A stretch of DNA of 64,000 nt from Acorus gramineus (taxonomy: Eukaryota > Streptophyta > Magnoliopsida > Acorales > Acoraceae). The position numbers and the translations under genes were made by a program. This document shows, one piece after another, positions 27,950 through 56,371 of this stretch. The notes below the pieces were generated by a model. The model was not told where the DNA came from. It did not search any database and saw only the letters and a program-made list of their open reading frames with translations. The DNA lies in the NCBI GenBank assembly GCA_030737835.1, contig CM060857.1, positions 13,403,496 to 13,467,495 of the forward strand, in the 5' to 3' direction. Every line of letters begins with the position of its first letter. Position 1 is the first letter of the stretch.

Positions 27950-28210
27950 CTACGGCTGGTTATCTTGCTTAGGATGATTTATGAGCCAGTTTCTTGCATC
28001 AGTGGAGTGGTGTGTGCCCACACTCGCTAAACGATAGTCACCGCCACGGCCGCCACTGTAGTTGCTAGCACTAGCAGGATCAGCATTGCCATCCATGCTG
28101 TTTAACTTAACCGCATCGTCCGTTCCTCTCTCTCCGCTTCCGTTCTCCAGCAGAAGACGTCCATCGACTGCGATCAAGGTCATGAACAAGACCAGGGCCA
28201 GGAGCTTCAT
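27950..28210 (-). CDS. secreted HH-motif peptide precursor, gene 1
   Basis: An 86-residue precursor. Residues 1-17 (MKLLALVLFMTLIAVDG) are a clear signal peptide, so the product should be secreted. RLLLENG follows the cleavage site. The propeptide is variable. The C-terminal core reads DYRLASVGTHHSTDARNW, ending LINHPKQDNQP. It fits the cluster motif Tyr-x7-HH-x6-aromatic. DY is a classical context for tyrosine sulfation. The coding exon is unspliced. A 76-base 5'UTR intron (28298-28223, TTG/GTAAGA to TGTCTAG) ends 12 bases before the ATG. It is the tandem-duplicate sister of gene 2. I do not recognise the family. Secretion is inferred from the signal peptide, and a signalling role from the small size and single conserved C-terminal core. 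Confidence 0.8.
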   Translation of the reverse strand: MKLLALVLFMTLIAVDGRLLLENGSGERGTDDAVKLNSMDGNADPASASNYSGGRGGDYRLASVGTHHSTDARNWLINHPKQDNQP

Positions 28211-28358
28211 GGTTTAATTCACCTAGACAAACAAAAAAAATTATATGTTATCCTTAGATTTGACATTATATAATGTGATTTGGCTTTCTAGTTCTTACCA
28301 AGTGGAGACTAGAGAGAGTGGTGGATATATATGGATTTGTTACATGACCAAAGGTGTG

Positions 28359-28366
28359 TTTATATA
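28359..28366 (-). promoter_or_regulatory. TATA box of peptide gene 1
   Basis: TATATAAA on the minus strand, about 60 bases upstream of the 5'UTR intron donor. The surrounding GAATTGGCC context is conserved in gene 2. Confidence 0.65.
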
Positions 28367-29169
28367 GGCCAATTCATATAATTGCATGTTAATGTTTATT
28401 TTTACACTGATTGTAATTTTTTGAGGCTTTTCAGAGATGCATTAATCCACTCTCAGAGTGGAAGAACTATTGCTATCATCACCAATGCTCAATTATTTTC
28501 ATCTCTGTGAACTTGTTGAGTTCCAAGCATTTGAGTAGGCAGGCTATAGGTGCCTAATTGGTCTGCCACAACAAAATGTTAAAACTCTTGTACTCTAGGA
28601 TTTTCCATTAAATAATAAATTATGATTTAAACATGTTGAACATTGTTAGTGCTTGCAGGGACTAGACCTATGGCACCCAGTGCAGGTGTTATGATGCTCA
28701 AGTCGACTGAGGTTAGTGGTGATTCCAATTTTACGTTTGATTAACAAAAAAGTGCAGGAAAACAAACTTTTCTTTGTTGGGATTACTGCTTAACAAGTTA
28801 ACATGCTTGTCAAAATAAATAAATAAATATTGCATTCATTGTTGGCAGACAAATTAATTACCTTTGTTTGTGTTTTTTAAGCTTCAGAAGAATTCCCTGC
28901 TTAACATGTTAATGTTTGATGAATAACTTTTTATTAAAATCACAATTTTTTGTGAGTTTTTGATGTTTAAGTGTGTCTAAATTTTATTATAAACAAAAAA
29001 ATTGAACATATATGATAAGCTTTAAAACTCTACAAAGTCCATGATCACTACAACTTCTATTGTGGTAAACATGCACTTAGCTTGCAATTTGTACTCAAAT
29101 AATAGAGTACCCTGTTCAGGATTCAAGGTCTGTTATTTGAAGAGTGAAAGGGATCAAGCATTGGATTAA

Positions 29170-29445
29170 GGAAAATGATAAACGCAGTCATGTTCACCAA
29201 CTAAAACTCACACCTCACATGTTTTCATTTTTTTTAAATAGTAAACATCATCTAATGATGTATATACTTTGATAAAAAGTGCATATCGCTCAATTTTGAG
29301 TTAAATGAACCCATTTTTAGTAAGTGTAAGAAAAAATTTAGTTAGATATATACAACATTTAACAAGTATATGTTTCACTGAATCTGTAACGAGGTATATA
29401 GGTCTGTGTTTTGGACTGAAAAAAAAACTGAGTGTACCAGCACTC
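29170..29445. mobile_element. MITE family M1 copy with 9-bp TSD and a known empty site
   Basis: Starts GGAAAATGATAAACGCAG and ends GTGTACCAGCACTC. The 9-bp duplication TTGGATTAA is exact (29161-29169, 29446-29454). The duplicated unit B carries a single uninterrupted TTGGATTAA near 34695, so the element entered unit A after the duplication. It is non-coding and internally AT-rich. Confidence 0.85.
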
Positions 29446-29974
29446 TTGGATTAATGTAATACTCTTGAATTAGGGGATTCTGCACATTTACTTATTGTGA
29501 TGCGCATATCATCCAAACAAAAGGTGAATAATATTGTAAATTTGTCCAAGTACATTTAAGATTACATGTTAATGGCAAATGTAAGTAAAGTGGACCAACC
29601 GAGTAGATGATTAAGATTAAAGGTTATGCTAATGCATAGGAAGGGATTTGTCCTTGAATCATGGAAGAGGAATTCAACTAGAGAAAGTGTGATTACAGAC
29701 TGAAAGCCTCAAGCAAGGGGTGATTTGATCAAATGCTTGATACCATTCAAAAGACCATGAGAGTCACGTCAAAATTTCCTTTTCAATACAGATGAAATGT
29801 GTATTCTTATATGTAAATGGCAGATCTGTACAAGAGTGAAGAAAACAGAAGCGGAAAACATGAACATGAAAACCATGCTCTAAAAAGGTTTTAGTTTGCC
29901 TTACAAATTATACACACCAAACTATTCCACAAAATCAACCATGCACATGAAGATCATGGTTCATGCCAACTTAG

Positions 29975-31763
29975 GTGCGATGATCAACAACAACTGCATC
30001 AGGTTTATTAAAGCGTGCAGATAAGTGTGCTTCGGCTAGAGCAAGATCAACTGCATTGGCTACACCTTGTCCAAGTGGGCCTGTCATGATTCATGAAGAA
30101 GTAAGAACAATTTTAGTCTAGATATAAAACCAAACAATGCAAGAAAATGAGGATAGATGGCAACGAAGACACACCAGTTGTGACCTCGATTCCATCCGTA
30201 ATAGTGTTCTCTGGATGACAAGGAGTTCGACTCCCTAGCTTATGATTGTTTCAAGTCTTCAATCTGCACCGTCAATCATTTTTACAGAAATAGATCAATC
30301 ATTCAAAAGAAATGTGTCAAGTTCCACCTACTGATTTATAGATTCACTTGCATCAATTTTTACTGAAAATCATTCTATAACATTTATAACAAACACAAAA
30401 GTGTAAGCATTTGCCTAATAACACCAGTTCTACATTCTAATGGATCAATATGGGTCAAAAAGAACCCCATTCACATAAACCAACTCAGGTAACATGAAAT
30501 CTAACGTATACACTAACACATATATATTTCTATTATTCACTTGGCATGGCTTAAATTTTTTTAGAAATAAATATTTAAAAATATAAAATAGTCTTTCCAA
30601 CTCGATCGTAACTCTGTAAGAAGCCACGGGGGTCCCTCTCATATATATATAAAAAAGGCTTAAAGACATCTAAGTACTCGCAAACATGGATAATCCCATA
30701 TAAGTCCTTATTAAAGTTGGGGTAGAAGTACAAATCCTTAAAAACTTACAAAAACTCATATACATCCCTGATTTTAACAAAAATTAATCATAACCCAACA
30801 TATCCTACTTAACTTTAACTTATAACCATGAAATGATTAAATTATTATCAAATTTTTTACCATTTTCAAACAATATCTCAATGAAAATGAAGAAATATAA
30901 AAAGTCTTACAATGGTAATTTGTCTTTGTATGAATTAATTTAATTTTATGATTATTTATAGAGACTATAATGTTTACACAATTACATGGAGATAAAATAT
31001 TTTATCAAATTTGAATGAAAATTTAATCCGATGATGATAATTAGATTTTAGTAAGTTTTTAAGAACTCCTGTGTCTGTCTCAACTTTCAAAGGGATTTAT
31101 ATATGATTACCTATGTTTGCAGGACGTAGATGTCTTTAACTTAAAAAAAAAAAAACATTTAAAAATATATATCAAATCATGATCCACATTGCCCTCATCT
31201 GATCCCCGGCAAGAAAGCAAAACCATTAAATCTGCCACATCAAAAGCAATTCTTCATAAATGGTTAAACATAAACAAACCAATTTAAGACAATTGAAACC
31301 CAAGATATTAAACCTGAACCGATTGAAACCCGGCGAGAGAAGACAGACATACTGAAGCAGGCACGAACCGGTCCCTGTTAACCCACCTCCGTATCACATA
31401 TCGGTGGAGATGATAACCCACCTCCGCCATGCCGAGGCCATCCCCGGGTGCCACGCCTTGGCGTTCTGCACGGCATCGGCCATGAGCATCCGGACATTGT
31501 CAACCGCTCTCCCGTCGACGCATTCCTGGAAAAAGCCGTCGTCTTTGTCGATTTTTTTCGAGGTTTGTGTCGGACCCATATGCGATTTTGAGCTCCTCCT
31601 TCCATTAAATCTTGTGGTCTTCGCAGGGAGAGCTGGTTTTGTTGTTGGGTTTCAAAATACACATCGGACGTTTGGCAGGGAAGGATTTGCGGTTAGGGTT
31701 GTGGATGGGTTTTGAATGTTGAAAGGGTTTGGGTGAGTGGAAGAGAAGGGAAGTGATCGCCAT
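29975..31763 (-). pseudogene. truncated transketolase relic (exons 1-3 only)
   Basis: A second, broken copy of the 5' part of the transketolase locus: exon 1 relic 31763 to about 31337, exon 2 relic 30263-30175, exon 3 relic 30080-29975. It starts with the same [11 protein letters not shown] frame. It has a stop at the LQWKEE position (CTTCAA became ATTTAA), frameshifts, a deletion covering the [11 protein letters not shown] segment, a TAG in exon 2 and a destroyed donor after exon 3 (GTAAG became CTAAG). It lacks everything downstream because the duplication breakpoint lies in intron 3. Confidence 0.85.
30660..31139. mobile_element. MITE with about 90-bp inverted repeats, inserted in unit B
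   Basis: Left arm TTAAAGACATCTAAGT..GCAAACATGG, with the right arm its near complement (CCTATGTTTGC..ACGTAGATGTCTTTAA). It is absent from the corresponding transketolase intron in unit A, so it postdates the duplication. About 480 bases, non-coding. Confidence 0.75.
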
Positions 31764-31989
31764 TAGAGACGGAGGTTTGTGTGATTGTTCTGTGAAGAAA
31801 ATACCAATGAAACAGAGGAGGGCGAGTGGACGTTTCTTGAATTTCTGATGCGGTTCTTCGCTTTATGTTATTCGTTCGTTTTTGACAAATAAAAGGCGTC
31901 CGTCATCGTTTGTGATGGCAAGGGTCAGTGAAAGTTATGACCACCGGGAGGTGGATTTATATCTATGAAAACGAAGAGAGTAGAGTTGG

Positions 31990-32830
31990 GACACGTCAGA
32001 GAATCCGTTCGCTTACGGGTGCGTTTTGTCGCGAGATTATACAGTTTTGCGATGGTAAGAAATTGTTTCTTTAATCGTGCAATCAAACAATTTAGTTGTA
32101 ACAATAAATTTTAGACCCAGAATTAAATTTTTTGGTTGAGCTTTAGACCCAGAATTAAATTTTTTGGTTGAGCTCTAGATAAACTTTTAAAATGGTTTTT
32201 TTAAAAAAATGTAGATTGTTAGAATATTACACATAATTTTATTTTATTTTAAGCTATAAATATCACAAAAATGGATACACAATATTATAAAATTATTTAA
32301 ATTACAACCTTCTATATTATTATATTCACATCAAAAGTTATAAAAATAATAAATTCTTAATAGAATGAGAAAATTGTAATAATAAAAAATACAGAGGATT
32401 TAAAATTTAAATTTTATATTGATTGGAGAAATTCGTGGAGGGGAAATATTTCAAGCTTGATGATAAGGATACTAAAGTGAGAGAGTGTTTTGAGATTGAT
32501 GAATTCATTTTTTTATTTATTTGGATCTTACCGTTCATTTTCAAAATTTCAATTGATCAGATGATTGAGGTCCTTCTTGAATGAGCGATTTTACAATCAG
32601 GCAACCAAATGCACCTTTGGTGATGATGAAAGAGAGGAATAGGTTGAAAGAGAGGAATAGGTTGATGACAAGGCGAATTTTGAACCGAATGATTTTGACA
32701 GGTGGACGAGACCACAATACTAACGGCTATGAGTAGTTCAGTCTGATTAAGCGTTTTGAAACAAAAACCGTTGGATCAATAGTATGTTTGGTAAGGTCCA
32801 CAAGATTCTTTTATTCCTCCCAATGTTTAG
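31990..32830. other. intergenic spacer in unit B
   Basis: AT-rich. A short direct repeat (AGACCCAGAATTAAATTTTT) occurs twice around 32110-32165. No gene. It differs from the corresponding spacer of unit A. Confidence 0.4.
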
Positions 32831-33505
32831 GAATGAATATGGGTGTTCCAAATAAAAAAAGATTTTGAGTACCACCAAAAAAATAAAATAAAAAGATTGT
32901 GAATGAAGGTTAAAGTATACCCAAATCTCTCATTGCATTCATAACCCATTAAATCCCTTTTGATTTGCAGCTCCCTAACGATTTTGATTTCCATTTTTAT
33001 ACGACTTCAGATCACCCAACACATATTAAAGATTAATTTTCTTAGAAAAATTTATTGAATTTGGTAAATCTTCTCATTCTTTTACTTTTACTGCTGGAGC
33101 ACACATAAAAAAAATCATGTTTAAAATCTTACACTCGAGTGAACATTCACGGGCCATCGAGACAAAATCCGTTCTTTCTTCATTTTTCCCTTAAATCACA
33201 GAAATTATTTAAATTGGCTTAAGCATAGAATAAAACTAATTAATCTTTGGACTACAGAATCTCAAGCCACCCCACACAGCCATATCTCATCACTGCATCT
33301 GATGCATCAGCACATACACAACACACCTTATATTAATTAATAATTAATCACCACATATCACCAGACAGTAATCAAACACAAGTCAGAGAGCTTCTGCCAC
33401 AATACATAGCTGCCATGCACAGGATATATTTATACAAAACCATCACCAAATGGCTGTTATTTTGGTCTCTTGTGCATGCACATATCATAACAGGCCAAGC
33501 ACACA

Positions 33506-33766
33506 CTACGGCTGGTCATCCTGCTTAGGATGATTTATGAGCCAGGGTTTTAGTCCAGTGCAGTGGTGTGTGCCCACACTCGCTAAACGATAGTCACTGC
33601 CACTGCAGCTGCCGTAGTTGCTAGCGCTAGCAGGATCAGCATTGACATCCATGCTGTTTAACTTAACCACACTGTCCGCGCCTCTCTCTCCGCTTCCGTT
33701 CTCCAGAAGAAGACGTCCATCGACTGTGATCAAGGTCATGAACAAGACCAGGGCCAGGAACTTCAT
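33506..33766 (-). CDS. secreted HH-motif peptide precursor, gene 2
   Basis: An 86-residue precursor, tandem sister of gene 1. The signal peptide (MKFLALVLFMTLITVDG) and propeptide are nearly unchanged, but the core region differs: DYRLASVGTHHCTGLKPW. By my count 17 residues differ between the sisters and 11 of them fall after residue 51. It has gained two Cys residues (GSCSGS, HHC) that gene 1 lacks. The ATG at 33766 is the first true ATG after the acceptor of a 72-base 5'UTR intron (33850-33779). Spacing Tyr-x7-HH-x6-Trp is intact. Function unknown; secretion inferred from the signal peptide. Confidence 0.8.
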   Translation of the reverse strand: MKFLALVLFMTLITVDGRLLLENGSGERGADSVVKLNSMDVNADPASASNYGSCSGSDYRLASVGTHHCTGLKPWLINHPKQDDQP

Positions 33767-33910
33767 GGTATAATTCACCTAGACAAACAAAAAAAAGGTA
33801 TATGTTATCCATAGAATTAACATTATATGATATGGTTTTCTAATTCTTACCAAGTGGATACTAGAGAGAATGGTGGATATATATGGATTTGTTACATGAC
33901 CAAAGGTGTG

Positions 33911-33918
33911 TTTTTATA
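33911..33918 (-). promoter_or_regulatory. TATA box of peptide gene 2
   Basis: TATAAAAA on the minus strand at the place homologous to the gene 1 TATA box. Confidence 0.6.
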
Positions 33919-35124
33919 GGCCAATTCATATAATTGCATGTTAATGTTTATCGATACCCTGATAATTTTTTGAGGCTTTTCAGAGGTGCATTAATCCACT
34001 CTCAGAGTGGAAGAACTATATGTTGCTATCATCGCCAATGCTCAATTATTTTCATCTCTGTGAACTTGTTGAGTTGCAACCATTTAAGTAGGCAGGCTAT
34101 AGGTGCCTAATTGGTCTGCCACAACAAAAGGTTAAAACTCTTATACTCTATGATTTTCCATTAAATAATAAATTATATTTAAACATGTTGAACATTGTTA
34201 GTGCTTGCAGGGAATAGACCTATGGCACCCAGTGCAGGTGTTATGATGCTCAAGACGACTGAGGTTAGTGGTGATTCCAATTTTACGTTTGCTTAACAAA
34301 ACAGTGCAGGATAACAAACTTTTCTTTGTTGGGATTACTGCTTAACACATGCTTGTCAATTAAAAAAAAAAAATTGCATTCATTATTGGCAGACAAATTA
34401 ATTACCTTTGTTTTTTTTAAGCTCTAGAAGAATTCCCTGTTTCATTAATTTGACTATGTTTGATGAATAAATTTTTATTAAAATCACAATTTTTTGTGAG
34501 TTTGATGTTTAAGGGTGTCTAAATTTTATTTATAAACGAACATGTATGATAAGCTTTAAAACTCTACAAAGTCCATGATCACTCTGACAACTTCTATTGT
34601 GGTAAACAAGCTCTAGCTTGCATGTACTCATATAATAGAGTACCCTGTTCAGGATTCAAGGACTGTTATTTGAAGAGTGAAAGAGATCAAACATTGGATT
34701 AAAGTAATACTCCTGAATTAGGGAAGATTCTGCACATTTACTCATTGTCCTGCGCATATCATCTGAACAAAAGGTAAATAATATTTTAACTTTGTCCAAG
34801 TACATGGAAGATTGCATGCTAATGTCAAATACAAGTAAAGTGGACTAACTGAGTAGATGATTAAGATTAAAGGTTATACATAGGAAGGGATTTGTCCATG
34901 AATTATGGAAGAGGAATTCAACAAGAGGAAGTGTGATTACTGATTGAAAGCCTCAAGGGGTGAGTTGATCAAATGCTTGATTCCATTCAAAAGACCATGA
35001 GAGTCATGTCAAAATTTCCATTTCAATGCAGATGAATATAGAAATTAAGTATGTTCAAGCGTCAAACTAGCACAACGCATGACTTGTTCACTTTAAACTG
35101 CCTGGTTGTTCAACTTATCACTAA

Positions 35125-35797: not shown

Positions 35798-36139
35798 CTA
35801 GTTATTTGGCTTAGGATGTTGGCTCTCCCAGGTCTGAGGATCGATGGAATGGTGACTATCAGTGCTCGTTCCATGATAATCACTTTTTATGCCATTCCAG
35901 TTTATATTAGTGGAATCTCTTGCTTGTTCAAGGTCCATACCCACACTGTTTACCTTCACCATGTCAACCACCATTGTGTGATCAGCTACAATGGTTCTTT
36001 TTACAGGCTCCAGGTTCACATGTTCTTGGTTCACTTGCTGCTTTGCCTTCTGATTAATTGCTCCTCCTTTAAAGGGGTCTCTTGCAGCAATTGTTGATGT
36101 AATGAAATATGTCAGAATGATCAGGGCCTGAAGCTTCAT
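35798..36139 (-). CDS. secreted HH-motif peptide precursor, gene 3
   Basis: A 113-residue precursor with signal peptide MKLQALIILTYFITSTIA, a long charged propeptide (residues 19-85), then the core SDYHGTSTDSHHSIDPQTW and tail ESQHPKPNN. The spacing Tyr-x7-HH-x6-Trp is the same as in genes 1 and 2, and the DY sulfation context is kept. The short tail ending HPKPNN recalls gene 1 (NHPKQDNQP) and gene 9 (MPKPYP). A 5'UTR intron of about 105 bases runs from 36260 (CTG/GTTAG) to an acceptor at 36156 or 36153. Genes 1 to 3 share the minus strand. I cannot name the family. Confidence 0.78.
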   Translation of the reverse strand: MKLQALIILTYFITSTIAARDPFKGGAINQKAKQQVNQEHVNLEPVKRTIVADHTMVVDMVKVNSVGMDLEQARDSTNINWNGIKSDYHGTSTDSHHSIDPQTWESQHPKPNN

Positions 36140-37007: not shown

Positions 37008-37009
37008 TC

Positions 37010-38223: not shown

Positions 38224-38511
38224 ATGAAGCTAGTTAGCATTTTCCTTGTAATACTTGTGATGGTGAACTGCTGCTTCGGCCAGCATAGAAGGCTACTGGT
38301 AGATAAAGCACATGTTCAGCATCAACAACAAGCAATGCAAAAAGGAACAGATGTTCAGGTGAACAGCCAACTTGGGTACTCCGGTAGCGCCACCAATAAC
38401 CATCACAGCATCCCAAGACAACAATATAGTGGATATAACAATGGTTCCGGACAGCAATCTGGATCAGGAGGGGATGGCGATAACAGTGGTGGTGGTGGTA
38501 CTACTGATTGA
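38224..38511 (+). CDS. secreted HH-motif peptide precursor, gene 4
   Basis: A 95-residue precursor. Signal peptide MKLVSIFLVILVMVNCCFG, then QHRRLLVDK, where the basic-x-LLVD block right after cleavage recurs in genes 1, 6 and 7. The core is LGYSGSATNNHHSIPRQQY, with Tyr-x7-HH-x6-Tyr spacing, and the tail is a 28-residue Gly/Ser/Asp-rich stretch. The ATG follows an acceptor (CTCTTGAAAACAG ending 38207, or the later ACAG at 38221), so a leader intron is likely. The donor could not be fixed. Gene 4 looks closest to the putative ancestral core NHHxIPRxxY. Function unknown. Confidence 0.8.
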   Translation: MKLVSIFLVILVMVNCCFGQHRRLLVDKAHVQHQQQAMQKGTDVQVNSQLGYSGSATNNHHSIPRQQYSGYNNGSGQQSGSGGDGDNSGGGGTTD

Positions 38512-40176: not shown

Positions 40177-40425
40177 ATGAAGATCCAAGCTGTACTGTTA
40201 ATGCTTGTGTTGGCCAACATGGTATTTGCTGATGATCAGAGAGAATTGCCGACATCTGATGGATCGAGTGGAGAACAGATGAACATGGATGGCGAGGCAG
40301 ATGCGAAAAACCACCACAACATACCCAGAGAACAGTATGGCAATTGGGAAAATATAGATAACCAGCATAGCCTTGAGGGTGACAATCAGTCCCCACATGT
40401 TGGCAGGGGAGATAATCACAGCTAA
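40177..40425 (+). CDS. secreted HH-motif peptide precursor, gene 5
   Basis: An 82-residue precursor. Signal peptide MKIQAVLLMLVLANMVFA, then DDQRELP. The core is EADAKNHHNIPREQYGNW: HH-x-I and the aromatic at +6 are kept, but the Tyr seven residues before HH is replaced by Asp, so any Tyr-dependent modification is lost. The tail is Asn/Asp/Gly/His-rich. The start is set by an 82-base 5'UTR intron (40091-40172, CAG/GTAACT to TTTTGTAG), ending four bases before the ATG. An apparent in-frame extension upstream crosses this intron and is not coding. Confidence 0.8.
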   Translation: MKIQAVLLMLVLANMVFADDQRELPTSDGSSGEQMNMDGEADAKNHHNIPREQYGNWENIDNQHSLEGDNQSPHVGRGDNHS

Positions 40426-40994: not shown

Positions 40995-41265
40995 CTTAAT
41001 TTTAGTCCACACACAGTTTTTATTTTTTTAAAAATAATATATACATCATCTAATAAGGTGCATGTTTTTATAAAAATTGAAACATATATTTCAATGAATT
41101 GCATGAATGCATTTATGGAAAATATAAAAAATTTCTAATAAAACATATAACTCGTTAATGTGAGTACTTAATGTGAGTACGTGGCGCTAATGAAACATAT
41201 GAAACTAGAATTGAGACTAGAATAAGGACGGTATGTAACAGCACTATATGTGTGGTGGTTTTCAT
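40995..41265. mobile_element. MITE family M3 copy
   Basis: A unit running TTTTAGTCCACACAC ... TAATGTGAGTA ... GTATGTAACAGCACTATA. A diverged orthologous copy lies in unit D near 46830-47020, so it predates that duplication. Confidence 0.5.
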
Positions 41266-41419
41266 TATTTTTTTTTTCAATTTTGTTTTTGTGGTAGTGA
41301 GGGCCATCGAAGGGCTGTTAAAAATATAGCACCTGTAAAGTGGTATGTCATGGTGATCAAATGGATATGACTTCACACATTAGAAAATGTAATGTATATG
41401 GAATGAAACAAGGATTTCG

Positions 41420-42490
41420 CACTAATAAGAAAGTATCAGATGTGAAAAATTAATAGGATACAAATTTTTTTTTTTTTTTTTTGATATCGGATGGATACGT
41501 ACTCTTGATGAAGCACAAGGACCATGTGAGAGGATACGTACTCCTGATAAAGTCACCATCTTCTCTCCCTCTCTTCCCCACTTTGTCGCTAGTTTGAAAC
41601 CCTAATTTTGTACAAGCACTAACTAGCTAAGCAAAGAAATGAGATGTCCGATTAAAAGAGCATGAATACAAAAATACCTACGAAAGTGATAAGAATAGAA
41701 GAGGTGTATAGTCTATCTCCAAGTAAAAAGAAAAAAAAATTCAATACAAATTACTCTTCAACATATAATCTCTCCCTAATAAAAGCCAGTCACAACCATT
41801 TAATTGACAACAGTCCAAAACGTTCAGAAAATCAATTACAAATGAATGGATTGATGAAAGAATTTAACAATATATTAATTTTTAAGTTCATTTTTCAGTC
41901 ACAATATTAGTTAATTTTTTTTTTTAAATAATATGTTTTTATAAAAAATAAACATATATCTAGTAAAATGAGACTAAAAAAAGAATTGTGTGTAACAATA
42001 CTCTAATTTTAATTTTAAAAATCTGATAGAATATCTTAATCAAATATCTATCTTAAAGGGATAAGATCTAACAGTAACAAGTGTTAGACAATCTAATTGT
42101 CCAACCTACCTGGACCTATCTGCAATGTCCTGAACACAAAACATGAGATGAAATCTATGTTCCTAGACCTAGTCAGATCCAATGAGTTATGTGTGGAATG
42201 ATCTATAGATGAGCCATGAGTGAGATTGGGGAATGGACTTGAGAAAGGATAAAACTAAAAAAAACCTAGTGTGAACGCATCTAAGGGAAGGTAGTCGATT
42301 CAGACTTTAATGATTTTCATAGACATTATTTAATAGTAGACTTTTATAGATTTTATAGGCTTTTACATACTTTTACAAACTTTTAAAGATTGATTTCATA
42401 GTTCTTTTCTTCTTTTTTTCTTTTTATTTGGGGGGGAGGTGGTTACACTAAGCAATATATCGGTCGGACTGTCAGTGCATGGTATCACAA
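41420..42490. other. intergenic in unit C
   Basis: AT-rich, with poly-T and G runs and MITE-like fragments. Matched by unit D without any open frame conserved between the copies, so I see no gene. Confidence 0.45.
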
Positions 42491-42765
42491 GTATACAATA
42501 AAGAGCATTAATACATTCAATTTATTTTATAGTCTCATCTACAGTCTCATACACTGTAATAACACAGTATATGTTGTGCTATCGGGTGTATGAACTTTAT
42601 CATAGTGTATGAAGATTAAATAAAAATAATTTTTTTTTTTAAATATTATTGTACCTCAGTGTATATTTTACTTTTTATAACAATATGTATTTTAATAGAT
42701 AAGTGTATAATTTAAAAAAAATAGTATGGACTGTGGATATGGGACTTCATGCATATCATTTTTCT
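42490..42765. mobile_element. MITE family M2 copy, inverted
   Basis: Carries the M2 words (TACACTGTAATA, GTGTATATTTTACTT, ACAATATGTATTTTAATAG) in the opposite direction to 8105-8385. The orthologous copy lies at about 48010-48300 in unit D. Confidence 0.5.
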
Positions 42766-43204
42766 TACAACAAATCATGTATGAGTGTAGATATATGCCT
42801 TGGCCAACTATGATTGTGGGCACCGGGCCACCGGCCCAAGATAGTTAGTTTAGTGGCCGACAGATTTTCGCCGTTGCTTGCAGCCCTTAATTTTCCCAGC
42901 ACACCTAGCTAGGTTATACTTTTGCAGTCTAATTTGGTTAGAATATTTTTTTCAAAATGAAGAGGTAGTTAAACAACATAATGGATGGAACTATGGAAGT
43001 ATAACCAAAGAACACAACCACTTTCTTCAAAAAAAAAAAAAAAAAGAACACAACCACGGGGCGTGCAAGTCAATATTTTTTCGATCTACATCAATTACTT
43101 GTTGTGTATAATGTGTGATTATGAAAAAAACATTATACTGAATTATTGATTACTTGTTGTATGTTGTGTTATTATGGAAAAACATTATAGTGATTTATTT
43201 AATA

Positions 43205-43618
43205 GATTTTAAGAATATTTTCACACGCCACAAATAAGACAATATTGTTTTATTGTATCCTGGAGATACATACAACCTCAGGATCGATATCACAAAATCT
43301 AGTGGATCAAGGAAAATAACGCTTTAAGTGAAGTTGCTTTGACATTTTTAGCTTATTTAGCGTTCAACAAATGTTCTATTGTCTGTCACTCTAATTGGAT
43401 CCCCAACATGTTTAAGCTTGTCAGTTTGTATGGATGATGTTAAGTTTCTGATTGCAGGTGGTGTTTTGGGACATGCTGTACAAAAATATAATATGATCTT
43501 TGAGCCATAGTGTTGCATGTGAATGCAAATAGGTTTTTCAATAAGGGAGGAGGATTGGCTGGAAGAACTTAGCTTGCTACGTAAAAAGTGCTTGTTTATC
43601 AAAAGAGTGCTCTAATTA
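43205..43618. other. 410-base segment present in unit C but not D
   Basis: Unit D passes directly from the ACAGATTTTAA-like left flank to the ACATGCAGCTTCGTA-like right flank. The segment is more GC-balanced than its surroundings and contains gene-like stretches in several frames, but nothing I can identify. Either inserted in C or deleted from D. Confidence 0.45.
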
Positions 43619-44264
43619 CATGCAGCTTCGTATGCAGTTAAAGATAATGTTTCATTAAATGAAAGATGTATTTTTTTATTTTTAATGTTCGTAAGTGAGT
43701 ATATACAATTCAGAGGAGTAATACAATCATATCATTATTTGCCCTTTGTATGTGACCATGTGACTTGGCCTTTCTTGATTGCTAGTGATGTGTGTTTCTC
43801 AATGCTAGATATTGTTCTGACCGATGGATGTGACGATGATACATGGTAAACAACAATAAATTTTCTGGAACTTTTTATGTTATTTATTCAAGGTCTAAAG
43901 AAGCATTTGGTGACAAGGTCTAGACACGCTTCTGTTTTTTTAATAAATTGAAAAGCACAAATGTATTATTAAACGCTCTTCAAAAAGAGACTTATTTAAA
44001 AAGTTATTTGTCATTTTTAGTACAAAAGATTAATTTTTAAAAAACGCAGAAAATGCGATTCCTAATAATTGAGTTTATTTAAATCACTTTATTCAAAATT
44101 TTATTTTTCTAACGTGTTTTCAAATACTACCTAAGAACAAAATGATATATATGAATAAAAGCTGATTAAATCAATCGAGAGTTTGTTCAGTTTTTCCTTG
44201 AGCTATTGTACACACACACACACGTGTGTATATATATATAAAACATTTTGGGAATATGTTAAGT

Positions 44265-44530
44265 ATAGTTCATTTTTCAAGCCCATTATCTATTCACATA
44301 TTTTAATTTTTTTTAAATGATATAAATAATATAATGAAGTATATGATTTTACAAAAATAAATAAATATATATAGTCCAATAAATTGTATAGTAGATCTAT
44401 TTATAAAAAATGTGAAAAAAATTGAAACAATGTATATTTTTTTGTTAATGTGAATATATGAAACTAACGATGTATAAGAGACTAAAATTAAAATTGAAAA
44501 AAATATTATTTGTAGCAAAACTCTAAATTT
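44265..44530. mobile_element. MITE family M3 copy in unit C
   Basis: Same order of words as the copy at 49085-49360 in unit D (AATCTAATGAAGTATATGATTTT-like, then GTTAATGTGA, ending in TAGCAAAACTCT). Confidence 0.5.
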
Positions 44531-45153
44531 TTATAAACGAGCTAAACTGGAAAAAAAAAAAAAATTATAACTACGTGGTAGCTGAGTTCCCCAAATCTAC
44601 CCTTGAAGGTCAGCTACTCTCAATCTTCCCAATTAAGAAAATCATAAAGAAATTAAAGATCACTGATAGACAATCAATTTACATGGCCAAGCAGGGTTTT
44701 TTTTTTTTTTATGTACATCTACAATATAATAGTACAATGATATATATAGTACATATTCAGTGTACTGATCAACATAATGAATAATGTGGATACTTCCATG
44801 AAGCTATTAAAGATATACTCACTGATCTCCAAAATTACCAAGGTATTAAGAGTATAGCCTTTTTACTGTAACATGCAAATATTTGACTTTCGTTTATCCA
44901 CATATAGTCATCCGATAAATACATATTGAGTTTTTTTCCCCTTCTCCATGGGATGATGAAGTCATGAAAATAAATCAATCGAGTCCTAGGCGAATCACAT
45001 GCACAAACATTCAAGCTATAACTGCAATGCTCTGATTTATTTACGTAAGATCTGCATAGCATTAGCTACATAACAGCACATCCCCATCTCATACTAAGTA
45101 CACTACTGGTCCAAAGCAGTTGTGCATGCATCATGTACTGCATAACACACTAG

Positions 45154-45426
45154 CTAATTTTTACCAGCTTTATCACCACCATCATTTCCACTCCCATTTC
45201 CCCCATTTGCCCAATTGCTAAAGTCATGCCTGTTTATTATGTGGTGGTTAATAGTAGAGGTCCCTGAGTATCCAGACCTTCCTTCCCCCTCAGTAATGCC
45301 ACCTCCTGTTCCCTCCTGCCCGAAGCTTTGTCCAGAAACTTCGTCGACCAAAACCTTCCAGTTCATCGCCAAGCAAGAGCTCACCATGAACATCATGAGT
45401 AGAACTGCTGCCACCTTCATGTTCAT
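45154..45426 (-). CDS. secreted HH-motif peptide precursor, gene 6
   Basis: A 90-residue precursor. Signal peptide MNMKVAAVLLMMFMVSSCLA, then MNWKVLVDEVSGQ, a Gly-rich propeptide, the core SGYSGTSTINHHIINRHDF and a Gly/Asn/Asp tail ending DKAGKN. Tyr-x7-HH-x6-Phe is intact. The start at 45426 is the first ATG after the acceptor of an 80-base 5'UTR intron (45519-45440, GTAG/GTGAGC to GGTTCCAG). Longer upstream frames cross this intron. It is a tandem sister of gene 7. Confidence 0.8.
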   Translation of the reverse strand: MNMKVAAVLLMMFMVSSCLAMNWKVLVDEVSGQSFGQEGTGGGITEGEGRSGYSGTSTINHHIINRHDFSNWANGGNGSGNDGGDKAGKN

Positions 45427-45601
45427 ACTAATTAGTGCACTGGAACCAAAAAAACATATGTTCACAGATAGTGATACTATAAATGAGAAAAATCTTATAA
45501 ATAAAATTCATTGGCTCACCTACTAAATGTGGAAAGTCAAAGTGTGTAGGAGGTGGAGGACTTCTTGGAGTTGGTTTGTTTTGGGGGGATGGAATATGAG
45601 C

Positions 45602-45609
45602 TATTTATA
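45602..45609 (-). promoter_or_regulatory. TATA box of peptide gene 6
   Basis: A canonical TATAAATA on the minus strand, conserved in gene 7. Confidence 0.7.
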
Positions 45610-48009
45610 GAGTGGAAAATGAGAAGGTTACATGTGGCGCTTGAAATAATTAAAACAGTGTTTTATAATGGATTTTCCACCATTTTGAGAAAATATTAGG
45701 TGGGGGGCACAAATAATTAGCAAAAGTAAATTTTTTTAATAATGTTGAATGATGAGTTGAAGGAAATATTATTGATTCCACATTAGCAGTTTTCATGGAG
45801 AGTCACCTGTGCCTATGCTGAATGATGTAAAAGCATTATCGTTGTGAGAGCTTTCGCCGAAGCTTGTAGATAATTCGCTATTTTTTTGGATGATTTATAT
45901 TTTAAGTGGTAATTATCCAGAACAATCTATGAATTTGTAGTGATCTCCTTGCCCGAATGAAGTTTGAGATTATTTTCACTTGAGAATATGTTATATAATG
46001 TTGTATATATATTGAGAGACATATAAACATTGTGATTTATCAGTGGATGATATTAGCTGTTTAACAAAAAGACAAAGCTTTAATATTTTCTACCACAAAC
46101 TCCATGTCTTTTGTAGACTTTAAAATCAGAGAAATTGAAATGACAGCCCAAAGAGTAGAAAAACACAAACTACTCAACCATCCACTGATTCAGGTCTGCG
46201 CTTGTTTGTTGGATTGAGTTGTTTCTTTGTTTTAATGAGCAAAATTAAAGTACAACCCATATAAATTTCACATCACCTAGTAAGTTTGTTGGACATTTTT
46301 AATTTGGGGCTTAGCCCTGAAAACTGGATCCCATTTGAGAACTATATATATATGAGAATATAATTCTAATCTACTGTTTGCTCTCTTTGGCCCATATGCA
46401 TGCATGCTTTTATTGAAACCTGATTATGCATGCTGGATGTTTTAGACCACATTCATTTTCATTATTGTTATCTCTGTTCGACCAACTTTTAAGTTTCAAA
46501 TATCACACTCCTATGTACGTGCCTTTGGAACTGATAATTTGCTCAAGCATAAGAATGCAGACCAAAAATGTCATGGACCACTAAATAGGTTTAGTGATTG
46601 GGGTATCATATTTGGACTTAAGAATTACATAAGCCATTATAGTCATATCATATGAAGCTTCTCGTACCGACGTTGATCTTGATTTAACTGTCAGAATAAA
46701 CCAGGTTTAAGAGAAAAGCACAATGTATTCTAAGAAGATAATGGTTTTCTCTTATATATTGTAAACTGCAACTAATATCTTCTTCCTTTCTATGTGGATA
46801 ATGTTGTGTAAGCCCAGCCCCTTTTTTCAGCTCTACTATTAGTACATGTTTTTAATAAAAATTGAAACATATACTTTAATAAATTATGTGAATACATTTA
46901 TAGAAAATATAATTTTTTTTTTAATAAATCATATATTTCGTTAGTGTAAGTATAAAACACAAACAAAATATATAAGACTGAAAAAAAAACTGTATGTAAC
47001 AACACTATATGTATGGAGGTTTTCATATATTTTTTTCAATTTTTTTTGTGGTAGTGAGGGTCATCTAAGGATTGTTAATAAAAAAGCACCTGCAGCGTGA
47101 TATGTCATGGTGATCAAATGGATATAACTACATACATTAGAAAATGTACACTGTATGGAATGAAACAAGGATTTCGTACTCATAATAAAGGATCATATGT
47201 GAAAAAAATTAAAATGCGTTGGGAGGTTAGGTACTCCTGATGAAGCACAAGGACCTGACCATGTGAGAGGATAAAATTAAAGTCACCATCTTCTCCCCTC
47301 TCCACTTTGTCTCTAGTTTGAAACCCTAATTTTGGTACAAGCCTTCTTGTAACCGTTTCGCATCAAAATTCAAAAAGTGCATCACAACTATCATCCAGCT
47401 GAGCAAGTCACGACCATTTACGACAGCCTAAAACATCCAGAAAATCAATTACAAATGAATGAATTGACACTATCTTAATTTTAAAGATAATATTGTTCTG
47501 TACAGTTATTTTCAATCACAATTTTAGTATACATATGTTTCAAATTTTTTTAAAATAATATATATATCATCTGATGGTATACATTTTTATAAAAAAATGA
47601 AACATATACCCATTAAAATGAGATTGAAAAAAGAACTATGTATAACAATTCTGTAATTTTAATTTTAAAATCTGATAGAATATCATATCTTAATCACGGT
47701 GTCTATCTTGAAATTATAAAATCAGACAATTGCAGGTTTTAGATAATCTAATTGCTCGTTAGACCGCAATGCCTTAAACACAAAACACGAGTTGAAATCT
47801 ATTTTCCGTGATCATATCCAATGAGTTGTGTGTGGAATGATCTATAGATGAGTGAAGATTGGGGAATGGATTTAAGTTCATTCTAAGAAAGGATAACACT
47901 AAAACAATTCAGTGTGAGCGCATTATTAATTATTTTTTTATTTAATTTTTTTTTTGGGGTGGGGGGAGGGGGGAATGGGGGTTGCAATGAGTAATACATC
48001 CTTCGGTGG

Positions 48010-48300: not shown

Positions 48301-49084
48301 CTTACAACAAATCATGTATGGTAGTGTAATGCTTGGCTAAGTATGATTATGGCACCGGGACACCGGCCAAGATAGGTAGTTTAGTGGCTGAAGATTTCAC
48401 CGTTGCTATATATATACTTTTGGGTAACCACTTGTCTGTTTTGGTTAGAATATTTTCAAAATGAAGAAGTAGTTAAACTACATAATGGATGCAAGTATAA
48501 CCAAAAACACAATCATGGGGCTTAAACCACATTGTACTTGCATGTCAGTATTTTTTCTACATCAATTACTTGTACTGATTTATATGAAAAAGACATTATA
48601 CTGATTTATTGATTACTTATTGTATGTTGTGTTATTATGGAAAAACATTGTTCTGATATATTAATACTGATATATTAACAGATTTTAACTTACATGTAGC
48701 TTCGTAGTTCGTACATAGTTAAAGATAATGTTTCATTAGATGAAAGGTGTATTTTTTGTTTTTAATGTTATATAAGTGAGTATATACAATTGAGAGAGTA
48801 ATACAATCATTTTTTTATCCTTTATATTTAACATGTGACTTGGCCTTTCTTGATAACTAGGGATGTGTATTTCTTAGTGCTAGATATCATTCTCACAGAT
48901 GGATGTGATAATGATGGTAAACAAGTTTGTCAATAAATTTTATGGATATTTTCATGAAATTTATACATGGGCTTTGATGCTTCATCAATATACAACGCAA
49001 ACTACTTAGATCGAACAAGAGTTTGTTTAGTTTTTCCTTGAGCTAGTGACATAAACAATATATTTTTGAAAAATCTCAAATACA

Positions 49085-49360
49085 ATTCTTTTTTTCATCA
49101 CAATTTTGGTCTACAAATATTTTAAATTTTCAAAAAATAGTATAAATAATCTAATGAAGTATATGATTTTATAAAAAAAATAAAAATAAATTAAGAATAT
49201 ACTTAAATGAATTATATAAATCTATTTATAAAAAAAATATATAAAGATATTAAAACAAGATATATATCTTGTTAATGTGATTGATGATAATAAGGTATAA
49301 AAGATTGGAAGGGAATCAGAAGAGAAAAAAATATTGTGTAACAGAATTCTTAATTTTCTA
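49085..49360. mobile_element. MITE family M3 copy in unit D
   Basis: Orthologue of 44265-44530. It contains TTTTGGTCTACAAATATTTT and ends near TGTAACAGAATTCTT. Confidence 0.5.
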
Positions 49361-49814
49361 TAAATGAGCTAAACTGGAAAAAAAAAATTGGTAGATGAGA
49401 GCCCCAGAAGGCCAAAGCCACTACCATTGAAGGTCAGCTACTCTCACTCTTCCCAATAAAATCATAAAGAAAACAAAGATCGCATATAGACAATCAAATT
49501 TGCATGGCCTAACTAGCTTCATTATTCTTTTTTAATTTTTATTTTTTTTTATGTACAACTACAATAGTACAATGATATAGTACTCGGTATAGGATGTCGA
49601 TCTACTCAACATAGTGAACAATGAAATCATGAAAATAAATTAATCGAGTCCCTCGGGAATCACATCCACAAACATTCAAGTTATAACTACAATGCTATGA
49701 TTTATTTAGGTAAGATCAGCATAGCATTAGCAACATAACATCACATCCCCATCTCATACTTTGTACAGTACTAGTCCAAAGCAGATGTGCATCATGTACT
49801 GCATAACATATTAA

Positions 49815-50096
49815 TTAATTTTTACCAGCTTTATAACCATTATCACCACCATCATTTCCACCACCATTTCCCCCATTTGCCCATTTGCCAAAGTCAGGCC
49901 TGTTTATTACGTGGTGGTTATTAGTAGAGGTCCCTGAGTATCCAGACCTTCCTCCCCCCTCAGTAATGCCACCTCCTGTTCCCTCCTGCCCGAAGCTTTG
50001 TCCAGAAACTTCGTCGACAAAAACCTTCCGGTTCATCGCCAAACAAGAGCTCACCATGAACATCATGAGTAGAATTGCTGCCACCTTCATGTTCAT
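49815..50096 (-). CDS. secreted HH-motif peptide precursor, gene 7
   Basis: A 93-residue precursor, sister of gene 6. Signal peptide MNMKVAAILLMMFMVSSCLA, then MNRKVFVDEVSGQ, the core SGYSGTSTNNHHVINRPDF and tail GKWANGGNGGGND..YKAGKN. Against gene 6 the core changes I to N before HH, I to V after it and H to P, and the tail gains three residues. The real start is the ATG at 50096 after a 79-base leader intron (50185-50107, TTG/GTGAGC to GGTTCCAG). The open frame extending up to 50387 is non-coding leader and intron. Function unknown. Confidence 0.8.
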   Translation of the reverse strand: MNMKVAAILLMMFMVSSCLAMNRKVFVDEVSGQSFGQEGTGGGITEGGGRSGYSGTSTNNHHVINRPDFGKWANGGNGGGNDGGDNGYKAGKN

Positions 50097-50266
50097 ACTT
50101 AGTGCACTGGAACCAAAAAATATATGTTCAGAGAGATTGATACTATAAATAGAAAAAAATCTTATAATAAAATTCATTGGCTCACCAACTAAATGTGGAA
50201 AGTCAAGTGTGTAGGAAGTAGGGGACTTCTTGGAGTTGGTTTGTTTTGGGGGAATGGAATATGAGC

Positions 50267-50274
50267 TATTTATA
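50267..50274 (-). promoter_or_regulatory. TATA box of peptide gene 7
   Basis: TATAAATA on the minus strand, at the same place as in gene 6. Confidence 0.7.
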
Positions 50275-50957
50275 GAGTGGAAAATGGGAAGGTTATATGT
50301 GGCGCTTGGAATAATTAACAAGTGTTTTATAATGGCTTTTCCACCATTTTGAGACAATATTAGGTGGGGGGCACAAATAATTATCAAAAGTAATTTTTTT
50401 TAATAATGTTGAATGATGAGTAGAAAGAAATATTGATTCCACATTAACAGTTTTAATGGGGAGGCACCTGTGCCTATGCTGAATGATGTAAAAGCATTAT
50501 CGTCATGAGAGCTTTCGCCGAAGCTTGTAGATAATTTGCTATTTTTTCGGATGAATTAAATTTTAAGTAGTAATTGTCCAGAAAAATCTATGAATTTGTA
50601 GTGAGTATCCTTACCCGAATGAAGTTAATTTGAGATAATTTTCACTTGAGAATATGTTATATAATGTGGTACATAATGAGTGACATGTATAAACATTGTG
50701 ATTTATCAGTGGACGATATTAGCTGTTTAAAAAAAAGACAAAGCTATATTATCTTCTACCACGAACTCCATGTCTTTTGTGACTTTAAAATCAGAGAATT
50801 TGAAATGACAGCCCAAAGAACAGAAAAACACAAAACAGTAATAAACCATCCACTGATTCAGGCCTGGGCTTGTTTGTTGGATTGGGCTGTTTCTTTGTTA
50901 GGTGCGGTTATTACCGCCCTATTAGATAATCAGCTCATCCCTTAAAATATTTATTTT

Positions 50958-54293: not shown

Positions 54294-54300
54294 TATAAAT
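54294..54300 (+). promoter_or_regulatory. TATA box of peptide gene 8
   Basis: TATAAAT about 65 bases before the leader intron donor at 54361. Confidence 0.6.
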
Positions 54301-54461
54301 TAGTGTCCTTCAAGCCTAATTCCCACAAATTATGTCCTCTAAGCAAACAGTCTGGTCTGGGTATGAATTCCATCTTTGTTCATATATCATCATAATTCTC
54401 TCATTTGACTAAGAAGTTCTCATTGATGCCTAAACTATTCTCATTACAATGCAGGATAAAG

Positions 54462-54824
54462 ATGAAGATTTCACTTGTGCTTCTCATCTTTCTCATTTCA
54501 AGCATGGAGGTTCCTAAAGCCTATGCAGAAAGTGGGGGAAATGAGGTGCGTGATCCAAGTTTCACTCCACAAGTGGGTACAAATGAAAACTTAGATCTGG
54601 GCCGCAAAGTCCAAGGAGTTAACAAAGGTGGTGGAATGATCGAAACAAACATAAATGTTGATCATAGCAGCAACAACAACGATGATCACGTGAAGGAAAG
54701 CAATGCTGATCCTCAATTAACTGATAGCAAGCTCTCCACCGAATCGCATCATCAGATACCAATAAAATTGTTCTGTGATATATGGGGGAAAGGGAAAACT
54801 CGAGCTGCGTGCGTGCATGCTTAA
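54462..54824 (+). CDS. secreted HH-motif peptide precursor, gene 8 (atypical core)
   Basis: A 120-residue precursor, the longest of the cluster. Signal peptide MKISLVLLIFLISSMEVPKAYA, then a long Asn/Asp-rich propeptide. The core is DSKLSTESHHQIPIKLF, with HH-x-I-P and Phe at +6 conserved. Asp replaces the upstream Tyr, the Arg of IPR is Ile, and the tail (CDIWGKGKTRAACVHA) has two Cys and four basic residues instead of a Gly- or Pro-rich end. The start follows a 94-base leader intron (54361-54454, CTGG/GTATGA to AATGCAG). It may have been re-purposed; alternatively the tail was recently acquired by frameshift. Confidence 0.7.
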   Translation: MKISLVLLIFLISSMEVPKAYAESGGNEVRDPSFTPQVGTNENLDLGRKVQGVNKGGGMIETNINVDHSSNNNDDHVKESNADPQLTDSKLSTESHHQIPIKLFCDIWGKGKTRAACVHA

Positions 54825-55921
54825 TTAGTACTGTAGTGATGGGAAGTATGTGTGGTATATATCCATGTCGAGTGATGGATATGTAGACCCTTGGGCCAAC
54901 TGTAATATGTATTAGTAACTGTATGAAATAAATATCCATGACTGGCATGGCTTTATGTTAAAAAAGTATATATATGTTGTCTTTGGGTTATTCTATGTTC
55001 AGTGGATTAGGGCTTTTGGATAAATTGCAACCTGCCTCTCATGGTGTGCATGCATGAGTGATGTAGTTTCATGTGCATTGATTATAGAGGTGCTTTTACA
55101 CATGTTATCCAATTCACTCTTTAGAGCTAGGAGACTGAAGGATCAAGTTAAGGTCACAATAACCTCCAAATTCAAGCTAGATGTATCATACACAATGACT
55201 TTGGAGGAATTACTAGGGTGTGATATGATTTAGATTGTTTCAGTTTACGGCTTCCAATAAAACTTTAGATTAAGAATTGACATCTCAATGCATATGATTT
55301 TGTTTTTATATATTGCTAGATACTTGAGAAATGTGCCTCAAGACTTTCTGAATTGTGTGAATCCCTAACTGGAGGTTGCAATGATATTCTTTTGAACCAA
55401 TTCTGGTGAGATGGTTAAGTGATCTTCAGTTATATAGAACAAGTTCCTATTAAATGTAGGGGGTTCCCATGTGAAATTCTTTGGATTAGCCAATTTATTT
55501 TCTGCTTATAGCTTCTTTTTTTTAGTCTTGCCATTTATATTAATCTGTCCATCACCAGTTGGTGAATATAATGCTTTTGTGGCAACATTTTCACAAAAAA
55601 AAATGGTCACCTTATGTGATTGTATCCATGATATGCCTTGGATTTGGTTATTTTTTTATTACTAGATAAACACAAGATGCCTAACCTATGCTGAAAAATG
55701 TATTGCATTGCTAGAAGATGCCCCTACATCGATCAAATCAGGAATATCGAAGTCTTTTACGCACTCAAACGCAGCTTAATGCGCCATAAACCACCTGATT
55801 TTTTATCGGCGTGCCATAGTGCGGGTAGTTTGTCGCCCACTAACAAGATTAGCCCTCCTTAAATGGGTGATGTTGAAGTTAATCAATCACTTGGAGTTGG
55901 CTCTAGCAACCAAAACACTTG

Positions 55922-56029
55922 GTATGCTCATCTCTTCTTCTCCTCTAACTTCTAATTCTTCATCGATAACAATCAATTACCAAGTATATGTCTTCCCTGA
56001 TCAATAATTTTATCTATCTATATATGCAG
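55922..56029 (+). other. 5'UTR intron of peptide gene 9
   Basis: Donor TTG/GTATGC and acceptor TATATATGCAG give a 108-base intron ending 12 bases before the ATG, the same architecture as in the other cluster members. Confidence 0.65.
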
Positions 56030-56041
56030 CAAATTAAAGAC

Positions 56042-56371
56042 ATGAAGATTGCTCTTTTTATTTTCATTGCTCTTACTTCAAGCATCATAGTTTTCAAGAC
56101 ATGCGGAGAGAGTACAGATCATCTTGTTCGTAAAGAAGATGGAGGATCTAAAGTTGGAAATACAATCAACTCTAACAGCCTTGAAGTGACTACCATCAAG
56201 GACTCCATGAATCCCATCTTTGCTAACACTATCGGGTCCAGAAACAACGATAACCACAACAACGACGAAGTAGTCCTTCCCAATCGTGCATCATCTACTG
56301 ATAGTCATCACCAAATAAGCATTGCTGAGTACAGGCGAATGTTCCATGATATGCCGAAACCATATCCTTAA
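56042..56371 (+). CDS. secreted HH-motif peptide precursor, gene 9
   Basis: A 109-residue precursor. Signal peptide MKIALFIFIALTSSIIVFKTCG, an Asn/Asp-rich propeptide similar in texture to gene 8, and the core NRASSTDSHHQISIAEY followed by RRMFHDMPKPYP. HH-x-I and Tyr at +6 are conserved; the upstream Tyr is Asn. STDSHH is shared exactly with gene 3. Gene 8 is its closest neighbour in position and propeptide style. No clear TATA box was found upstream of the leader, unlike the other eight genes. Function unknown. Confidence 0.72.
   Translation: MKIALFIFIALTSSIIVFKTCGESTDHLVRKEDGGSKVGNTINSNSLEVTTIKDSMNPIFANTIGSRNNDNHNNDEVVLPNRASSTDSHHQISIAEYRRMFHDMPKPYP

What the first reader, a model, noticed from the sequence alone, without database searches (positions are those of the whole stretch)
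27950..56371. Nine-gene cluster of an apparently uncharacterised secreted-peptide family
Nine small genes in 28 kb each encode a signal peptide and one conserved C-terminal core. Aligned by eye, HH is followed by an aromatic residue (W, Y or F) after exactly six residues in all nine, and the residue two after HH is Ile in seven and Thr in two. Outside the core the propeptides are almost unalignable. That is how plant peptide-hormone precursors (CLE, CEP, RGF, PIP) behave, but the core matches none of those I know. The cluster could be an undescribed signalling system.
Basis: partly seen in the sequence, partly recalled or inferred. Interest (0 to 1): 0.92.

Follow-up and report, generated by a model that had tools for sequence, protein, structure and literature searches.

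The report
Unnamed plant secreted-peptide gene family
A plant genome region carries nine neighbouring small secreted-peptide genes with a short conserved "double-histidine" core, relatives of which also occur in banana and apple; it looks like a peptide-hormone family without a name, but its function is untested.

Summary
Nine ORFs in 28.4 kb each have a hydrophobic leader and HH-x-[I/T]-x4-[W/Y/F]: 9 of 38 ATG ORFs of 75 aa or more, against one in 30 shuffles. The host is very likely Acorus, an early-branching monocot. New here: (1) a splice-acceptor-like site lies 4-16 nt before a shared MK (MNMK in two) start in 9 of 9, suggesting a common 5'-UTR intron; four ORFs have an earlier, probably unused ATG. 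(2) g1/g2 and g6/g7 are segmental tandem duplicates. (3) The family reaches beyond the cluster: a profile of g4-g7 and one A. calamus orthologue finds banana and apple proteins, E 2.7e-7 to 8.8e-5. No Pfam model reaches its cut-off, nine named peptide-family motifs fit 0 of 18 proteins, and five motif text searches gave no relevant paper. Best reading: an unnamed angiosperm family of secreted peptide precursors, amplified in Acorus. Signalling is inferred. Membership is strong for g3-g7, weaker for g1, g2, g8, g9. Expression was not testable.

The parts
27950..28210 (-). g1, 86 aa precursor, core HHSTDARNW, DY ending eight residues before HH
33506..33766 (-). g2, 86 aa, core HHCTGLKPW; segmental duplicate of g1
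35798..36139 (-). g3, 113 aa, core HHSIDPQTW, DY ending eight residues before HH
   Evidence: E 6.4e-6 to the HMM of g4-g7 plus homologues
38224..38511 (+). g4, 95 aa, core HHSIPRQQY; A. calamus orthologue P0001 (91 of 95 identical)
   Evidence: E 2.8e-15 to an HMM of the five non-Acorus proteins
40177..40425 (+). g5, 82 aa (likely start), core HHNIPREQY; A. calamus orthologue P0004
   Evidence: E 2.1e-4 to Musa P0007 alone
45154..45426 (-). g6, 90 aa, core HHIINRHDF
   Evidence: E 5e-10 to the HMM of the five non-Acorus proteins
49815..50096 (-). g7, 93 aa (likely start), core HHVINRPDF; segmental duplicate of g6; A. calamus orthologue P0003
54462..54824 (+). g8, 120 aa (likely start), core HHQIPIKLF
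   Evidence: E 0.17 to the HMM of g4-g7 plus homologues
56042..56371 (+). g9, 109 aa (likely start), core HHQISIAEY; A. calamus orthologue P0002
23025..29796 (.). duplicated block A, matching pieces at 29808-35036; carries g1 (copy: g2) and a transketolase 5' exon
   Evidence: self-BLAST
41058..46231 (.). duplicated block B, matching pieces at 46842-50899; carries g6 (copy: g7)
   Evidence: self-BLAST

Best explanation
The nine genes are paralogues of one unnamed angiosperm family of small secreted peptide precursors. Each is probably transcribed with a 5'-UTR intron ending just before the ATG, enters the secretory pathway, and is proteolytically trimmed to release a peptide centred on [S/T]-x-x-H-H-x-I-[P]-[R]-x-x-[Y/W/F], possibly starting at the nearby Tyr, which acts on a cell-surface receptor, most likely a leucine-rich-repeat receptor kinase. 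In Acorus the family grew by tandem and segmental duplication into a nine-gene cluster whose precursor arms diverged while the key core residues (HH, Ile, aromatic) stayed fixed. Shown here: ORFs, core, duplications, acceptor-like sites, homologues in banana and apple. Inferred: expression, splicing, processing, receptor, signalling.
For: Motif far above chance. Anchored columns: H0 and H1 7/7, I+3 6/7, aromatic +8 7/7, S-4 and T-3 5/7. Acceptor-like site 4-16 nt before the MK/MNMK start in 9 of 9; scores shifted above those of all window ATGs, Mann-Whitney p 1.3e-6. Homologues in Malus (2.7e-7, 4.2e-6, 8.8e-5), Musa (7.7e-6) and an unlabelled near-copy of the Musa protein (3.0e-5). An HMM of only these five, run over 1249 ORFs in 224 kb, ranks g4, g7, g6, g3, g5, g8 as the top six (E 2.8e-15 to 0.6, the last three above 0.05). 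The HMM of g4-g7 plus homologues gives g3 6.4e-6, then g8 0.17 and g1 0.42. Profile-profile comparison of {g1,g2,g3,g8,g9,P0002} with the rest aligns exactly 13 core columns, probability 75.9, pairwise E 2.3e-5. Four A. calamus orthologue pairs differ at 4-7 sites each, never at HH, the Ile or the aromatic.
Against: No transcript, peptide or receptor evidence. dN/dS of the recent duplicates is about 1 or more (g1/g2 0.110/0.104; g6/g7 0.049/0.035, few changes), so purifying selection on them is not shown. Between orthologues the 13-residue core as a whole is not quieter than the rest: 5 of 52 core sites against 17 of 327 other sites differ over the four pairs (summed); only the key residues hold. 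An HMM of g1, g2, g3, g8, g9 and P0002 does not score the homologues convincingly above their own shuffles (9 of 500 shuffles reach the real score for Musa P0007 and for P0008, 36 to 390 of 500 for the other six). g1 comes far down the list (E 19), and g2 and g9 are absent, with the non-Acorus HMM. The acceptor matrix was an approximation recalled from general plant acceptors, duplicated genes are not independent, and g4's site is weak (16% of all ATGs score as high).
Confidence: 0.65

Rival explanations
1. Secreted glycine/asparagine-rich small proteins (GRP-like) with a structural or antimicrobial role, not ligands.
For: g4, g6, g7, Musa and Malus share Gly/Asp/Asn-rich tails; one A. calamus orthologue (P0003) is named 'Glycine-rich protein' by a source.
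Against: g1, g2, g3, g8 and g9 lack the Gly tail but keep the core. The C-terminal parts have net charge -6 to +2, unlike classical cationic antimicrobial peptides (general knowledge). Pfam GRP (PF07172) matches g4 only at E 1.6, below its cut-off.
Confidence: 0.15
2. A divergent branch of a known tyrosine-sulfated family (PSY, RGF/GLV, CIF, or the wheat DYY family).
For: Tyr eight residues before HH in 6 of 9 genes, preceded by Asp in 3. Relative to that Tyr the second His falls at +9, where the PSY motif DYxxxx[AP]NxxHxP (PMC7913133, passages) has its His, and g4 and g7 have Asn at +6. Wheat has an unassigned DY family called DYY (PMC9532867, passages).
Against: 0 of 18 proteins fit the PSY, RGF or CIF pattern. 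Tyr is preceded by Gly in Musa and Lys in Malus, and its distance to HH differs in Malus. Ile stands where PSY has Pro. DYY sequences are only in a figure, so that link is untested.
Confidence: 0.12
3. Only g3-g7 belong to the angiosperm family; g8/g9 and perhaps g1/g2 resemble it by convergence or chance.
For: g9 and g2 are not listed by the non-Acorus HMM, and the group-B HMM does not clearly separate homologues from shuffles.
Against: Same 28 kb cluster with none found in the flanks, same MK start plus acceptor-like site, same core spacing, g8-g9 E 0.018, g1-g3 E 0.15, core-only hhalign E 2.3e-5.
Confidence: 0.1
4. The HH pair is a metal-binding site of a small apoplastic protein.
For: HH is the only pair of residues identical in 7 of 7 lineages.
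Against: No further His or Cys is conserved in the columns examined, and Ile and an aromatic at fixed spacing are conserved too, which fits a receptor contact better than a metal site (inference).
Confidence: 0.05

Closest known systems
PSY (plant peptide containing sulfated tyrosine)
   Same: Small secreted precursor, short C-terminal core after a Tyr, divergent precursor arms; in 6 of 9 genes the second His falls at +9 from the Tyr, as in the PSY motif.
   Different: 0 of 18 proteins fit DYxxxx[AP]NxxHxP; Ile instead of Pro, D before Y in only 3 of 9, and the Tyr-HH distance varies in Malus.
SCOOP (serine-rich endogenous peptides)
   Same: Works-like model: a multigene family of small secreted precursors with short C-terminal cores (50 putative Arabidopsis members, PMC11756074 passages; clustering recalled).
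   Different: No SxS core (1 of 9 genes by a loose test, in its tail); SCOOPs are Brassicaceae-restricted (recalled), whereas this family is in Acorus, Musa and Malus.
RGF/GLV/CLEL, CLE, CEP, PIP
   Same: Precursor architecture: leader, variable arm, conserved short core near the C-terminus.
   Different: None of their core motifs (recalled patterns) is present in 18 proteins.
Wheat DYY family (PMC9532867, passages)
   Same: Monocot peptide family of unknown function with a DY start.
   Different: Its sequence is given only in a figure, so not compared; DY occurs in only 3 of 9 genes here.

Membership tests
PSY | DYxxxx[AP]NxxHxP core (PMC7913133, PMC11641228, passages) | tested here: not met
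   0 of 9 window genes, 0 of 9 homologues
PSY | sulfated Tyr after Asp | not testable with these tools
   DY present after residue 25 in g1, g2, g3 only; sulfation needs mass spectrometry
CLE / CEP / RGF / PIP / IDA / CIF / PSK / CTNIP | family core motif (patterns recalled) | tested here: not met
   0 of 18 proteins for each
SCOOP | SxS in the C-terminal core (recalled) | tested here: not met
   only g4 and its orthologue P0001 match a loose pattern, in the Gly-rich tail outside the HH core
Any Pfam-A family | score above curated cut-off | tested here: not met
   0 of 9 genes, 0 of 8 homologues scanned, P0002-P0009
Plant small secreted peptide precursor (the kind) | short protein with N-terminal hydrophobic leader | tested here: met
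   82-120 aa with the likely starts; hydrophobic 10-mer 2.3-3.5; SignalP not available
Plant small secreted peptide precursor (the kind) | conserved short core near the C-terminus, variable rest | tested here: met
   between paralogues; core in 18 of 18 proteins (the homologues were found partly by that core). Between close orthologues the core as a whole is not quieter than the rest
Plant small secreted peptide precursor (the kind) | processed, secreted, receptor-binding | not testable with these tools
   needs peptidomics and binding assays

The most novel reading that the evidence does not exclude
HHxIPR-type peptides form an undescribed peptide-hormone family that predates the monocot-eudicot split, has its own receptor, and has been amplified to nine tandem genes in the sister lineage of all other monocots, with the precursor arms and the variable core positions diversifying after duplication.
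Probability: 0.4. Interest if true: 0.72.

Novelty: new member of a known kind. Interest (0 to 1): 0.52.

Why it matters
Plant genomes hold many orphan receptor kinases and many unassigned secreted peptides (general knowledge). A core shared by Acorus, banana and apple gives a concrete peptide (for example GYSGSSVDNHHSIPRDQY from the banana protein) that can be synthesised and matched to receptors, and the Acorus cluster supplies nine natural variants showing which residues may change.

Tried and rejected
PSY membership was the most tempting (Tyr, Asn at +6, His at +9) and was rejected on the published motif. Sulfated-peptide reading in general: only 3 of 9 genes have DY, and the Musa and Malus proteins do not. 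Acorus-only family: my reading, which returned only Acorus hits; overturned, when a narrower profile found Musa and Malus.

Further members: none in 80 kb on each side, and none judged a member in the 40 kb scanned at each of two other transketolase loci (two ORFs there matched loose patterns, a 214-codon one on C10 and a 64-codon one on C4, and were dismissed on reading). One weak g8 hit on C11 (E 3.1, three stops) was read and dismissed. Whole-genome searches with six of the nine genes (g7, g4, g9, g3, g8, g5) found only cluster members apart from that hit; that tool scores only its best candidates, and even g4 missed most of the cluster, so distant paralogues elsewhere are not excluded. Searches with g1 and with the banana protein did not complete; g2 and g6 were not used as queries. 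Rfam, tRNA, NCBIfam and PDB scans gave nothing relevant. Motif text searches returned no paper; one search returned ten, all unrelated judged by title and start of abstract. The shuffle control was flawed, because decoys built from P0002 kept a leader used in training; it was redone without P0002.
Full report
WHAT IS THERE. The window is plant DNA. Its own genome is 398.6 Mb in 137 contigs, with the window at C11:13403496-13467495. The closest proteins found are from Acorus calamus, 91 of 95 and 102 of 109 residues identical for g4 and g9. Acorus gramineus is diploid with a 391.63 Mb assembly (PMC10282084, passages), and A. tatarinowii has about 415 Mb of contigs (PMC9300462, passages), so a diploid Acorus is the likely host (inference). 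They are 9 of 38 ATG ORFs of 75 aa or more; 30 dinucleotide shuffles gave one such ORF in total. A motif-plus-leader scan found no tenth member within 80 kb on either side.

GENE MODELS. Each gene has a conserved MK[I/L/V/F] start (MNMK in g6 and g7). A splice-acceptor-like site lies 4-16 nt before that start in 9 of 9, and the scores are shifted above those of all window ATGs (Mann-Whitney p 1.3e-6). Caveats: the matrix is an approximation recalled from general plant acceptors, g1/g2 and g6/g7 are not independent, and g4 is weak (16% of ATGs score as high). Donor-like sites lie within 1.2 kb upstream of each of the nine, at a like place in g1/g2 (AAG|GTAATT, 639-651 nt) and in g6/g7 (371-380 nt) (no control was run). 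The four A. calamus orthologues, themselves gene predictions, begin at the same starts. So g5, g7, g8 and g9 probably begin at 40177, 50096(-), 54462 and 56042, and the genes encode 82-120 aa.

EVOLUTION OF THE CLUSTER. Self-comparison shows two segmental tandem duplications: 23.0-29.8 kb to 29.8-35.0 kb, carrying g1/g2 and a transketolase 5' exon, and 41.1-46.2 kb to 46.8-50.9 kb, carrying g6/g7. dN and dS are 0.110 and 0.104 for g1/g2, and 0.049 and 0.035 for g6/g7: no sign of constraint between recent copies, on few changes. Orthologues in A. calamus bear A- and B-type gene names: P0001 and P0003 have consecutive numbers on B21, P0002 and P0004 are two apart on A09, so the cluster appears to predate the species split (inference from gene numbers).

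THE CORE. Counting one of each recent pair (seven lineages) and the first H as 0: H0 and H1 7/7, I+3 6/7, aromatic +8 7/7, S-4 5/7, T-3 5/7, Y-8 4/7; among the ungapped columns -25 to +21, none outside -8 to +8 exceeds 3/7. Between species the four orthologue pairs differ at 1-2 of 13 core positions each, never at HH, Ile or the aromatic; but summed over the pairs 5 of 52 core sites and 17 of 327 other sites differ, so the core as a whole is not quieter than the rest at this short range.

RELATIVES. A profile of all nine and a core search with g4 returned only Acorus. A profile of g4, P0001, g5, g6 and g7 returned 8 proteins among 341 candidates: three from A. calamus, three from Malus domestica (2.7e-7, 4.2e-6, 8.8e-5), one from Musa troglodytarum (7.7e-6) and one unlabelled near-copy of the Musa protein (3.0e-5). 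The Musa core region reads GYSGSSVDNHHSIPRDQY, one Malus region KYPGSSLNSHNIDNHHNIPRQYY. Reversed test: an HMM built only from the five non-Acorus proteins, run over 1249 ORFs of 224 kb, ranks g4 (2.8e-15), g7 (2.4e-10), g6 (5e-10), g3 (0.057), g5 (0.079) and g8 (0.6) as the top six; g1 is far down the list (E 19), and g2 and g9 are not listed. The Musa protein alone gives g4 6.4e-16 and g5 2.1e-4. Adding g4-g7 and their orthologues to the HMM gives g3 6.4e-6, g8 0.17, g1 0.42, g9 4. hhalign of {g1,g2,g3,g8,g9,P0002} against the rest aligns only 13 core columns, probability 75.9, pairwise E 2.3e-5. Against: an HMM of that group does not score the homologues convincingly above their own shuffles (9 of 500 at best, 390 of 500 at worst). 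So g3-g7 are firm members; g1, g2, g8 and g9 rest on core, linkage, start and acceptor.

KNOWN OR NOT. No Pfam family reaches its cut-off for 9 genes or the 8 homologues scanned. PSY, CLE, CEP, RGF, PIP, IDA, CIF, PSK and CTNIP patterns: 0 of 18 (all but PSY recalled). Text searches for the motif found no relevant paper. A 2025 review of plant peptide hormones has no word beginning NHH, HHSI or HHNI in the part held (PMC11756074, passages). PlantSSP's uncharacterised families are shown only in figures and supplements (PMC4526923, passages and one section), and the wheat DYY family only in a figure (PMC9532867, passages). The present family could be among them; that was not testable.

HOW IT PROBABLY WORKS. 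By analogy with plant peptide hormones: secretion, trimming to a peptide around the HH core, and perception by a receptor kinase at the cell surface. Only the architecture is shown. A Gly-rich structural or antimicrobial role is the main rival.

VERDICT. A real, apparently unnamed angiosperm family of secreted peptide precursors, expanded to nine clustered genes in Acorus; new as a family, ordinary in kind; function open.

Noticed in passing
20490-24596 (-) and 31254-31960: A transketolase gene borders the cluster, 61-62% identical to two other transketolase loci of the genome on C10 and C4; its 5' exon was copied with the g1/g2 block, and the frame I translated in the copy holds two stops, so the copy looks broken.
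   Followed up: partly
4157-5800 (-): Single-exon 547-codon ORF with Pfam Sugar_tr at 2e-50, resembling a PHT1 phosphate transporter (name recalled).
   Followed up: partly
63304-63984 (+): GNAT acetyltransferase ORF, PF00583 at 1.2e-17.
   Followed up: no
767-1123 and 61049-61742: A repeat about 92-94% identical between the two ends of the window, itself tandem near 61.0-61.7 kb.
   Followed up: no
33506-33766: g2 differs from g1 at five of the six residues between HH and W (STDARN to CTGLKP, Thr kept), while HH and the aromatic stay fixed.
   Followed up: partly
38224-38511 and P0005, P0007: A basic stretch right after the leader (RRLL in g4, RRAML in Malus, RHKL in Musa) resembles subtilase SBT6.1/S1P sites (recalled); not tested.
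   Followed up: no
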